IMG/VR virus record: IMGVR_UViG_3300012988_000033
Coordinates: 1-31,325 of that record
DNA length: 31,325 nt
From: a virus
Strand: one strand, 5' to 3'
The translations under genes and the position numbers were made by a program. Shown here one piece after another: positions 3,980 to 10,988 of this stretch (position 1 is its first letter; each line of letters opens with the position of its first letter). A model generated the notes under the pieces. That model was not told the origin of the DNA and searched no databases. It worked only from the letters and a program-made list of their open reading frames with translations.

Positions 3980-4077
3980 AGCGCACCTCGCAGAAACAGT
4001 CCAAACACGAGTCCGATCGCGGCCGAGACGCAGGCGGCGAGTGCGGCGGTGGTTACGGCTTCGGTGAGCTTGTTCAC
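3976..4077 (-). CDS. Tiny single-pass membrane protein
   Basis: This 33-residue ORF (start VNKLTEAVTTAALAACVSAA, end FLRGAL) is almost entirely one hydrophobic helix. It is linked at both ends by GTGA overlaps: its GTG uses the stop of the upstream gene and its TGA overlaps the downstream GTG. This exact double coupling is the main support, since short hydrophobic frames can arise by chance. Function unknown. Confidence 0.5.
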   Translation of the reverse strand: MNKLTEAVTTAALAACVSAAIGLVFGLFLRGAL

Positions 4078-4397
4078 GGCGCACCTGCCTTCGCCAGAAT
4101 ACGGCGGACTCTCTCCTCGGTCGATTCGCACGGCATCGCATCGACGATGCGGAAATTGGTCGTGCGGTCCGGCATCCCGAGTTCACTACCACCTTCCAGC
4201 GTTCCGAAGGCATAAGGCCAGTTGGCGCCCCACAGCTCTACGCCATTCAGCGTGATGGTGAAATGGTCTTCACGCACGGGCGCGTAGCCGGCGTCGAGTT
4301 GTTCGTTGATCCACGCGCTAAGTACGCGCGATGTATGGAAATTCCTGATCCAGCATCCGGGCGTCCGGACGATTCGCAGAATGTCTTTCAGCTTCAC
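4074..4397 (-). CDS. Hypothetical phage protein
   Basis: This 107-residue protein starts with GTG in a GTGA overlap (VKLKDILRIVRTPGCWIRN). It contains SAWINEQLDAGYAPVREDHFTI and a conserved-looking LNGVELWGANWPYAFG segment. I recall similar small proteins in other Proteobacteria phages with the phrase V.LWxxNYPYA, always without assigned function. No membrane segment or signal peptide. Confidence 0.65.
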   Translation of the reverse strand: MKLKDILRIVRTPGCWIRNFHTSRVLSAWINEQLDAGYAPVREDHFTITLNGVELWGANWPYAFGTLEGGSELGMPDRTTNFRIVDAMPCESTEERVRRILAKAGAP

Positions 4398-4720
4398 GGC
4401 ATCCCCCTCTTGAAGTAGTTGGTCAGCCCGTCGATCTGCGCCTGTACGCCTAACGGCGTCCCGATGTTCACCACCTTCTGCCCGCGCTCATGCTTCGTCT
4501 CCGGCGGCAGCGCGCCGCGGATCGTTGCCACGGGGGGCCAGCGTGTGGCCGTGCGCTCGACCGCATCGAACGCGGCGGACAGGCGCGCCTCACTGTAGAT
4601 GCCAAGGTGCTTCAACCACACTTCGGCCGTTCGCTCGATCACCGCCATCGACGGCGTGCCTTCCAGCCCGAGCGCCATCAACGCCTGCATGCGGGAGAGA
4701 ATCAGGGCGCGTTGCGTCAT
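4394..4720 (-). CDS. Hypothetical protein, possible helicase-loader-like
   Basis: This 108-residue protein starts MTQRALILSRMQALMALG; the start at 4720 is chosen over one at 4735 because GGGAGCG lies just upstream of it. The product is helical with EVWLKHLGIYSEARLSAAF followed by RWPPVATIRGALPP. The arrangement (W-x2-L, a helical bundle, then W/F-P-x-A-x-I-R) recalls small phage DnaB-loader proteins such as G39P-like ones. The match is weak, and a replication role is inference supported mainly by the DnaT-like gene in the same operon. Confidence 0.65.
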   Translation of the reverse strand: MTQRALILSRMQALMALGLEGTPSMAVIERTAEVWLKHLGIYSEARLSAAFDAVERTATRWPPVATIRGALPPETKHERGQKVVNIGTPLGVQAQIDGLTNYFKRGMP

Positions 4721-9138: not shown

Positions 9139-9292
9139 AAACATTCCCGGCCGCCTGCGCGTGCTGGCGGAGCTGCTGTGGGACCGCGAGGATGCGAAGC
9201 TGTTGAACGACGCGGCAGACGAGCTGGAATCCCTGTACGCGCGGCCCGTGGGGCTGCGCTTCACGCTACCGAAGGAGGAAGACCATGCGTAA
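9128..9292 (+). CDS. Small hypothetical phage protein
   Basis: This 54-residue ORF starts MTNENIPGRLRVLAELLWDR and is a helical, acidic protein ending RFTLPKEEDHA. It overlaps the end of the membrane gene by 11 bases and the start of the exported protein by eight. Its final codons contain the GAAGGAGG that serves as ribosome binding site for the next gene. Confidence 0.55.
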   Translation: MTNENIPGRLRVLAELLWDREDAKLLNDAADELESLYARPVGLRFTLPKEEDHA

Positions 9293-9974
9293 CCTGAAAC
9301 GACTTCCCGTCGCGCTCGCGGTCGCTGCGGCGATCGGAGGCGGCGCGCTGTTCCTGTCGCAGACAGAGCCCGGCACGATCTTCGCGAACGGATTCGACCC
9401 ACCCGCTCCCGTCGGCTGTCCCGCCTCGGCGACGCTCGACGGCATCCCGCGCACGCGCTTGACGGTCAGCAACATCGCCTACGGCGCGTCGCTCTCGACC
9501 CGCCCTGCGGTACGGCTGGACGAGTACGGCGCGGTCTACAGCTACAACAGCGGCGCCCCGGGACCGGTGCTGCCCTTCCCAGGCCTCGCCGGCTCCGCCC
9601 CGCGGTATATGGCGTTCCGGCCGTCGAGTTACATCGGCCTGCGCTTCACCGTCCCCGCCGACATCGACCCGCGCAGTGCCGGCCGGTGGATGGCGCCCAG
9701 CGCATGGCCGGGGAGCCTGCCGATTACCGTTGCCGTTTCCAGCGCCTGCGGCGACTTCTCCGCGCATCTGCCGTCGACTGGCTGTAGGGTACAGGGGGTA
9801 CCCGCCGCCGACGCGCAGCTCGTGTTCTGGACGCTTTCCGGGGCATCTCCGGCTACGTCCTGCGTCCTGCGTCCGGGCGGGGTGTACTACCTCAACATCG
9901 CGCAGACCGATCCGGGCAAGCAGCCGGCGTGCTCGGGCAACGTCTGCCAAGCGCCGGCGGCGTGGATCAACTAG
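9285..9974 (+). CDS. Exported protein with signal peptide and disulfide-type cysteines
   Basis: This 229-residue protein has a signal peptide: basic MRNLKRLP, then hydrophobic VALAVAAAIGGGALFLSQ. It is followed by EPGTIFANGFDPP. The IFxxGFD/E motif is, from memory, common in secreted proteins of Xanthomonadaceae, suggesting host-derived sequence. The mature part is proline/glycine- and beta-rich with paired cysteines (SSACGDFS, STGCRVQ, ATSCVLR, QPACSGNVCQ), fitting a periplasmic or extracellular fold. A strong GAAGGAGG precedes the ATG. An exported protein in an early phage operon may be a moron gene altering the cell surface or blocking superinfection; that is inference. Confidence 0.7.
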   Translation: MRNLKRLPVALAVAAAIGGGALFLSQTEPGTIFANGFDPPAPVGCPASATLDGIPRTRLTVSNIAYGASLSTRPAVRLDEYGAVYSYNSGAPGPVLPFPGLAGSAPRYMAFRPSSYIGLRFTVPADIDPRSAGRWMAPSAWPGSLPITVAVSSACGDFSAHLPSTGCRVQGVPAADAQLVFWTLSGASPATSCVLRPGGVYYLNIAQTDPGKQPACSGNVCQAPAAWIN

Positions 9975-10021
9975 GGTCTTGTGTTTCGTTTCGGAGACGA
10001 GTAGAACGTTTTCCAGAAACA

Positions 10022-10052
10022 AACGCCCCGGCACGGAAGTGCTCGGGGCGTT
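10022..10052 (-). terminator. Strong hairpin with a T-rich tail on the minus strand
   Basis: AACGCCCCG (10022-10030) pairs perfectly with CGGGGCGTT (10044-10052). Inside, GCAC pairs with GTGC around a GGAA loop, with one bulged T. On the minus strand the stem is followed by TGTTTCT, the form of a factor-independent terminator; on the plus strand no T-run follows. No minus-strand gene ends here, so it may instead be the first hairpin of the structured region. Confidence 0.5.
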
Positions 10053-10486
10053 ACGTCGGCGAAGGGCGATTCCCGACGGATGGCTGCGGTGTGAACGGCA
10101 CCGGGCGCAGCAAGCATACACGCTTCTGCCCCTCCTGCAAGTCTCCCACTCCTTCCATTCAGAATCGCTCCCAGCCGGCTCCCGGCGCAGGGTCGCTTAG
10201 CCTTGCCACTGGCTGCGTCGGGAACTCCGTTACCAGGGCCTCGGGAAACCGAGGGGTCGAGAAAGCGGCGCTGCCGGCGTGCGTGGCGGTAGCGAAAGAG
10301 TAGAAGCCACCGGGCTACGGTCTGTCCGAAAGGATCACCCGAAGCCGAGAACCCCGAAAGCCTGTCCGGCCGAGGGAAGGCTCGGCTTTGTCGAACCGAA
10401 GGATCAGTGGGTATAAGCCAAGTGACCAATACTCCTAGAAAACAGTTGAACAGGTTGAAGAATCAACTACGCAAGGGAGTGCGTAG
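10022..10486 (+). ncRNA. Candidate structured RNA preceding the HNH gene
   Basis: This covers the only long gene-free stretch in the early operon (9975-10406) and runs into the HNH reading frame. Successive perfect stems are CGTCGG/CCGACG (10054/10073), GCTGCG/CGCAGC (10083/10106), GCCGG/CCGGC (10174/10182), CCTCGG-GAAA-CCGAGG (10239-10254), GTCC-GAAA-GGAT (10324-10335), AAGCCGAG/CTCGGCTT (10342/10381), GTTGA/TCAAC (10454/10463) and CTACGCA/TGCGTAG (10467/10480). GTGGC (10283)/GCCAC (10306) and GTAGC (10289)/GCTAC (10314) interlock as a pseudoknot. A near-repeat CCGAA(A)GGATCA occurs at 10326 and 10396. This resembles HEARO/omega-type RNAs upstream of HNH genes, but identity is unproven. Confidence 0.45.
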
Positions 10487-10988
10487 AAAACTTGGCCTGC
10501 CCAACAAAGCGACGTGCGCTCAGGTCGCCGAAGCATTGGCAGCGCATGGTTTCAAAGGGTCGAAGTTGAAGACATACGCTGCATTTCTCGGGATGGACTA
10601 CCACGCCGAAAGATCGTCCATCAAGGACGCGGCACGAAAGACCTACCTGCCGCCTCGGAAGCCTTTGGTGGTTCGTCCCGCCTACTTACCGCCGATGCCC
10701 AAGCGCAGCCCGGATTACCGCAAGGACGAAGGATTCTACGAATCGAACGAGTGGCGGCAGGTGCGGTACTTCGCCCTTCGCAGGGCGGACGGATGCTGCC
10801 AGTGCTGCGGAGCGCGGGCAATGCCGGACAACCCGCTTCACGTCGACCACATCAAGCCACGCTACACGCATCCCGAGCTGTCGCTGGACCCGGATAACCT
10901 GCAAGTCCTGTGCGTCGATTGCAACATGGGAAAAGGCGCATGGGACGATACCGACTGGCGTTCCAAAACGAGAGGGGAAACCGTATGA
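10407..10988 (+). CDS. HNH endonuclease
   Basis: This 193-residue protein has a C-terminal HNH nuclease domain: YESNEWRQVRYFALRRADG at 111-129, cysteines in CCQCCG at 130-135, the catalytic HVDHIKPR with D147/H148, and NLQVLCVDCNMGKG at 164-177 with the second cysteine pair. The domain cuts DNA using one metal ion. The first 100 residues are basic, with QLNRLKNQLRKGVRRKLGLP and KATCAQVAEALAAHGFKGSK, perhaps a DNA-binding helical unit. There is no PLMP or RuvC motif as in IscB or IsrB. The start is uncertain: the GTG at 10407 has AAGGA only three bases upstream, and strong hairpins extend to 10486. Its stop overlaps the next start as ATGA. Confidence 0.85.
   Translation: MGISQVTNTPRKQLNRLKNQLRKGVRRKLGLPNKATCAQVAEALAAHGFKGSKLKTYAAFLGMDYHAERSSIKDAARKTYLPPRKPLVVRPAYLPPMPKRSPDYRKDEGFYESNEWRQVRYFALRRADGCCQCCGARAMPDNPLHVDHIKPRYTHPELSLDPDNLQVLCVDCNMGKGAWDDTDWRSKTRGETV

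What the first reader, a model, noticed from the sequence alone, without database searches (positions are those of the whole stretch)
9975..10988. Dense run of RNA-like hairpins and a pseudoknot directly preceding an HNH endonuclease gene
Seen: in an operon where genes overlap by four bases, 432 bases carry no credible gene but at least six perfect stems, two GAAA tetraloops and one interlocked pair of stems (10283-10318). Two more stems lie inside the start of the HNH frame. Known: HEARO/omega RNAs sit upstream of HNH- or RuvC-type genes (IscB, IsrB) and guide them. Inference: this may be such an RNA or a relative. The AAGCC segment in the pseudoknot recalls those RNAs. But the HNH protein has no visible PLMP or RuvC part, so a true match would be a new pairing.
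Basis: partly seen in the sequence, partly recalled or inferred. Interest (0 to 1): 0.75.

Follow-up and report, generated by a model that had tools for sequence, protein, structure and literature searches.

The report
Pseudoknotted phage RNA beside HNH gene
The gap in front of this phage's HNH nuclease gene very probably encodes a folded RNA related to a little-known bacterial RNA motif (Betaproteobacteria-1); similar RNAs lie beside nuclease genes in other phages but also occur without them, so it does not look like a guide RNA for the nuclease.

Summary
9975-10406 is non-coding and full of stems, and its 3' half is strikingly conserved: 10174-10465 is 100% identical in a sister phage while the 95 nt before it diverge.

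It is not HEARO. RF02033 was found in 14 of 14 IscB control loci and never in the window.

Relatives of the HNH protein led to a phage RNA family with two crossing helices. On 9 sequences 22 of 32 pairs show compensatory change, 96.8% of cells pair, and 0 of 500 shuffles reach this. Its better-scoring members match Rfam RF02932 (Betaproteobacteria-1 RNA, function unknown) below the gathering score.

The window RNA (about 10174-10406) is probably a divergent member. It is the best covariance-model hit in the window, though weak (9.2 bits, E 0.07), and its sequence similarity exceeds shuffles and almost all other window segments. It is not itself an Rfam hit.

In RNA-first searches 4 of 9 distinct viral loci have HNH downstream and 5 do not. 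HNH is a recurrent but dispensable neighbour. RNA-guided HNH is unsupported; an operon-leader role is my inference.

The parts
10174..10465 (+). block without a single difference from the sister phage (L002); holds the RNA and the first 59 nt of the HNH frame
10174..10406 (+). proposed RNA, divergent member of the phage RNA family related to RF02932
   Evidence: best R3 hit in the whole window at 10240-10396, weak (9.2 bits, E 0.07); similarity to L228 222 against shuffles 129 +/- 17 and ranked first of 1074 window segments; colinear with L228 from end to end
10180..10223 (+). 5' hairpin, arms 10180-10190 and 10213-10223
   Evidence: same place as the 5' hairpin of RF02932 (alignment), by reading
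10227..10268 (+). stem 1: CCGUU 10227-10231 with AGCGG 10264-10268, followed by ACC and preceded by GAGAA as in relatives; carries an extra GAAA hairpin 10239-10254
   Evidence: sequence; helix 1 of the family
10269..10294 (+). hairpin a: CGCUGCC 10269-10275 with GGUAGCG 10288-10294, loop 10276-10287
   Evidence: sequence; descriptor scan on the near-identical sister locus L055; helix 3 of the family
10283..10310 (+). pseudoknot: loop GUGGC 10283-10287 with GCCAC 10306-10310, linker AAAGAGUAGAA
   Evidence: sequence; descriptor scan; helix 4 of the family, 7 of 7 pairs with compensatory change
10289..10318 (+). alternative pairing GUAGC 10289-10293 with GCUAC 10314-10318, competes with hairpin a
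   Evidence: sequence
10319..10338 (+). GGUC...GAUCACC segment, near-identical to L225/L228
   Evidence: alignment
10342..10388 (+). 3' hairpin AAGCCGAG 10342-10349 with CUCGGCUU 10381-10388, with GGGAAGG before the 3' arm (GGGAUGC in relatives)
   Evidence: sequence; helix 5 of the family; aligned
10398..10403 (+). Shine-Dalgarno-like GAAGGA
   Evidence: sequence
10407..10988 (+). HNH endonuclease, 193 aa: helical N-terminal part of no known family, HNH domain at 131-177
10022..10052 (-). GC-rich hairpin with a T-rich tail on the minus strand

Best explanation
The gap encodes a roughly 230-nt structured RNA, a divergent member of a phage-borne RNA family related to Rfam Betaproteobacteria-1 RNA (RF02932). 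The family fold is a 5' hairpin, stem 1, a hairpin whose loop pairs downstream (pseudoknot), a second crossing helix (not found in the window) and a 3' hairpin. The RNA's own function does not depend on the HNH protein. The HNH gene is most likely a free-standing homing-type endonuclease that has repeatedly come to lie just downstream of this conserved RNA. Shown here: the family fold and its covariation, and its occurrence with and without an adjacent HNH gene. Probable: membership of the window RNA. Inferred only: the RNA works in cis as an operon-level leader, for example by acting on transcription elongation as HK022 put RNA does (about 0.35; a trans-acting RNA about 0.3).
For: Conservation of 10174-10465. 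Family covariation: 19 of 32 pairs compensatory on 4 HNH loci, 22 of 32 after adding five loci found by a sequence pattern alone, 96.8% of cells paired, 0 of 500 shuffles, slid versions 36-40%. Model R3, built without the window, has its best match in the 31-kb window at 10240-10396 +. Sequence similarity: L228 222 against 129 +/- 17, summed score 1611 against 1265 +/- 88, 0 of 300 shuffles; rank 3 of 1074 window segments on the summed score and first for L228. RF02932 matches L468 (44 bits) and L228 (35 bits) on the same strand and place. The RNA occurs without an adjacent HNH in L216, L217, L222/L225/L228, L224 and L478. In the viral loci read, the next credible ORF lies downstream on the same strand.
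Against: The window RNA reaches significance in none of the covariance models (E 0.07 at best over the whole window) and gives no RF02932 match at E up to 10. R1 ranks nothing there. R3's calibration is rough: at least three genome hits of 25-31 bits lie in coding sequence. The second crossing helix (GGNNC/GNNCC) of the family was not found in the window. Only near-identical sister sequences exist, so covariation cannot be tested for the window's own subgroup. No promoter or plus-strand terminator supports a particular transcript. HNH genes elsewhere in the HNH-less phages were not excluded.
Confidence: 0.62

Rival explanations
1. The RNA is a functional partner of the HNH protein, as omega RNA is of IscB: it binds the protein and guides or activates cleavage, and HNH-less phages carry solitary copies.
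For: HNH directly downstream in 4 of 9 distinct viral loci found by RNA pattern alone and in L065 and the window; P0001 residues 117-181 match the NCBIfam guided_IscB profile better than any other NCBIfam model (32.6 bits), although that reflects only the HNH domain; variable sequence just upstream of the conserved block.
Against: 5 of 9 distinct RNA loci have no HNH next to them. Many relatives of this HNH have unrelated or no RNA upstream. No RuvC, PLMP or RF02033. The N-terminal parts of the RNA-associated HNH proteins differ widely.
Confidence: 0.1
2. The structure is a cis-acting translational or stability switch for the HNH gene itself, keeping a potentially harmful nuclease low.
For: The 3' hairpin ends 18 nt before the GTG start and the Shine-Dalgarno site lies between them; RBS-sequestering hairpins are known for phage homing endonucleases (from general knowledge).
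Against: The same RNA precedes unrelated genes at variable distances, and a simple RBS switch would not need a conserved double pseudoknot.
Confidence: 0.12
3. The window RNA is not homologous to the family. It is a GC-rich, stem-rich intergenic region kept identical in two phages by recent recombination, and the resemblances are selected by eye.
For: Weak model scores; another 365-nt identical run exists at 4058; z-score of the core only about -1 to -1.6.
Against: Similarity tests with shuffles and with the window's own segments as null; position and strand of the best R3 hit; same order of five structural elements.
Confidence: 0.15
4. It is a HEARO/omega RNA or a group I/II intron.
For: Position before an HNH gene; AAGCC in the pseudoknot.
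Against: No Rfam match at E up to 10 in 1.1 kb or in the 271 nt alone, although RF02033 is found in 14 of 14 IscB loci down to 32 bits; the family fold differs from the RF02033 consensus.
Confidence: 0.01

Closest known systems
Betaproteobacteria-1 RNA, Rfam RF02932
   Same: 5' hairpin closing around CGGGUAA...ACGGC, stem 1 around GUGGGA and UGARA, hairpin with loop pseudoknot and GAA linker; relatives of the window RNA score 25-44 bits
   Different: the window itself gives no match; the phage family adds a covarying second crossing helix and a 3' hairpin that are not in the 120-nt Rfam model; HNH gene often downstream
HEARO / omega RNA of IscB, RF02033
   Same: structured RNA directly upstream of an HNH-encoding gene, with a pseudoknot
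   Different: no sequence or structure match; protein lacks RuvC and PLMP; the RNA family is not tied to the nuclease gene
HK022 put RNA (PMC9378689)
   Same: phage RNA in the leader of long operons, adjacent to different genes; in L225 it follows cI- and cro-like genes, roughly where putR also lies
   Different: put is about 70 nt with two stem-loops; this family is about 200 nt with pseudoknots; no antitermination activity is known
Phage HNH homing endonucleases (PHROG 144, 589, 5956)
   Same: HNH domain of P0001 matches these families
   Different: the N-terminal part (1-105) matches no family; recurrent structured RNA upstream

Membership tests
HEARO/omega RNA (RF02033) with IscB | match to the covariance model | tested here: not met
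   no match at E up to 10; 14 of 14 control loci matched
HEARO/omega RNA (RF02033) with IscB | protein with PLMP/RRXRR and RuvC parts | tested here: not met
   Pfam: HNH families plus one weak HEAT hit, no RuvC or RRXRR; guided_IscB 32.6 bits against cut-off 175, HNH part only
HEARO/omega RNA (RF02033) with IscB | RNA guides the nuclease to DNA | not testable with these tools
   needs experiment
Betaproteobacteria-1 RNA (RF02932) | score above the gathering threshold 49.4 | tested here: not met
   window no match; relatives L468 44.4 and L228 34.9 bits, below threshold
Betaproteobacteria-1 RNA (RF02932) | order of elements: 5' hairpin, stem 1, hairpin with loop pseudoknot | tested here: inconclusive
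   all present in the window by reading; alignment of the window to RF02932 matches p = 0.003 to 0.12
phage RNA family described here (models R1-R3) | significant covariance-model score | tested here: inconclusive
   best hit of the window but E 0.07; not found by R1
phage RNA family described here (models R1-R3) | second crossing helix GGNNC/GNNCC | tested here: not met
   no partner for the GGUC before GAGAA found after hairpin a, by reading
phage RNA family described here (models R1-R3) | end-to-end sequence similarity above chance | tested here: met
group I or II intron | Rfam model match | tested here: not met
HK022-type put RNA | about 70 nt, two stem-loops, antitermination by binding RNA polymerase | not testable with these tools
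   size and fold differ; activity needs experiment

The most novel reading that the evidence does not exclude
A pseudoknotted RNA that works together with a small, RuvC-less HNH nuclease: an RNA-guided or RNA-activated HNH enzyme outside the IscB/Cas9 lineage, with HNH-less phages carrying the RNA alone.
Probability: 0.08. Interest if true: 0.92.

Novelty: new variant of a known kind. Interest (0 to 1): 0.52.

Why it matters
RF02932 has no assigned function that I know of. This work connects it to a wider phage RNA family, adds a pseudoknot, a second crossing helix and a 3' hairpin with compensatory changes, and shows recurrent juxtaposition with HNH nucleases and with other phage genes. That turns a vague motif into testable hypotheses: operon-leader control, a homing site for HNH genes, or an RNA-HNH partnership.

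Tried and rejected
HEARO: rejected with a positive control. Group I/II introns and ribozymes: no Rfam match. Similarity in named phages and plasmids: none for the window RNA beyond chance (the Ciceribacter hit is inside a coding gene) and none for L217 or L228. The pattern CGAAAGAGTAGAAGCC in viral contigs gave only chance hits besides the sister phages. P0001 in genome contigs: nothing. Pseudoknot descriptor scan: recovers known members but is only mildly enriched over shuffles across all HNH loci, so most long gaps before HNH genes are not shown to hold this RNA. Genome hits of R3: L467, L469 and L470 lie in coding sequence and were rejected; only L468 looks real. AlphaFold of P0001 gave a moderate model (pTM 0.47); no fold search was run.

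Full report
Observation. The upstream gene ends at 9974 and the HNH frame (P0001, 193 aa) starts at GTG 10407. Folding energy is unusual for 9975-10490 (z -3.8) but not for the RNA core alone (z -1.1 to -1.6), so energy is not the main argument. Comparison with a sister phage (L002/L013) is stronger: no difference over 292 nt (10174-10465), then one until 10573, in a block with 106 differences over 1.8 kb. Random placement of the differences never gave such a run in 20,000 trials. The 95 nt just upstream are highly diverged. Recombination could produce identity runs too (one of 365 nt lies at 4058).

Not HEARO. The window has no match to RF02033 at E up to 10. As a control I fetched 14 IscB loci from plasmids and a phage, and cmscan found RF02033 in all 14, down to 32 bits. 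The protein has the HNH domain only; the N-terminal part is helical and of no known family.

From the protein to an RNA family. HNH relatives in phages often have long non-coding gaps upstream. The upstream DNA of L072, L086, L058 and L075 aligns. Reading it gave five helices: stem 1, a crossing helix GGNNC/GNNCC, hairpin a, a loop pseudoknot and a 3' hairpin. On the four sequences 95% of cells pair and 19 of 32 pairs show compensatory change. A sequence pattern from the core then found five further loci (L216, L217, L224, L225, L228) that had not been used to define the structure. With them 96.8% of cells pair, 22 of 32 pairs are compensatory, all seven pseudoknot pairs among them, and 0 of 500 shuffles reach these values. 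A second pattern added L478.

The RNA is not tied to HNH. Among nine distinct viral loci found by RNA pattern alone, four have HNH as the next gene. Five have other genes: zinc-ribbon proteins (L217, L478), a VRR-NUC-like protein (L216), a ParB-like protein after cI- and cro-like genes (L225, L228), and connector and capsid genes (L224). These gene names are my reading of the translations. Whether HNH genes lie elsewhere in those phages was not tested.

Relation to Rfam. cmscan of the new members gives RF02932, Betaproteobacteria-1 RNA, on L468 (44 bits), L228 (35 bits) and L072 (25 bits) at the right place and strand, below its gathering score of 49.4. RF02932 matches from an order-wide search (4 of 399 genomes over the cut-off) show the same order of elements and have no HNH directly downstream in the stretches read. 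The phage family is therefore a broader relative of a known motif whose function is, as far as I know, not established.

Is the window RNA a member? R1 does not find it. R2 gives 5.0 bits. R3, which adds L065 (found by R2 at E 0.0036), gives 9.2 bits and E 0.07; this is the best hit of the whole window, on the right strand and place. E-values are rough: chance hits of 25-31 bits were seen in genomes. Independent of models, the local alignment to L228 scores 222 against 129 +/- 17 for shuffles and the summed score 1611 against 1265 +/- 88, 0 of 300 shuffles. Among 1074 segments of the window itself, the RNA ranks third on the summed score and first for L228. By reading, the window shows the 5' hairpin, stem 1 with ACC and GAGA neighbours, hairpin a with loop pseudoknot, the GGAUCACC segment and the 3' hairpin. 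It lacks the second crossing helix. I put homology at about 0.85, and I do not file it as an RF02932 member because the threshold is not met.

Function. What is shown is a conserved fold in phages next to different genes. My preferred inference is a cis leader acting at the level of the operon, comparable in role to put RNA (PMC9378689), with HNH as a homing-type neighbour; a trans-acting RNA is nearly as likely. RNA-guided HNH remains possible at about 0.1. No literature on an HNH-linked RNA of this kind turned up in the held library, which lacks many subscription papers.

Noticed in passing
L050 745-960, L062, L072, L217 (upstream of the RNA): A second conserved element, 76-80% identical between some of these loci, ends in a terminator-like CCCCAG...CTTGGGGTTTTTC whose 5' arm lies inside another hairpin (pseudoknotted terminator); it folds far better than shuffles in Kintu (z -5.6).
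   Followed up: partly
L051 725-930 and L053 715-880 (Vibrio phages): A promoter-like TTGCAT...TATAAT is followed by a small RNA with interlocked stems and a T-tract, upstream of an HNH gene; the stems differ in sequence but keep the architecture.
   Followed up: partly
window 4058-4422: 365-nt run identical to the sister phage L013, the longest in the compared parts; cause unknown.
   Followed up: no
L217 440-722: tRNA-Pro and tRNA-Gln genes lie shortly upstream of the structured RNA.
   Followed up: no
window 10022-10052, minus strand: A GC-rich hairpin with a T-rich tail on the minus strand suggests a possible antisense transcription unit across the RNA.
   Followed up: no
window 9285-9974: Predicted exported protein of no known Pfam family directly upstream of the RNA.
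   Followed up: no
L065 1493-1679: RNA upstream of an HNH gene that bridges the family and the window (GCGAAAGAGAAGCCGC; crossing helix GCUCC/GGAGC).
   Followed up: partly
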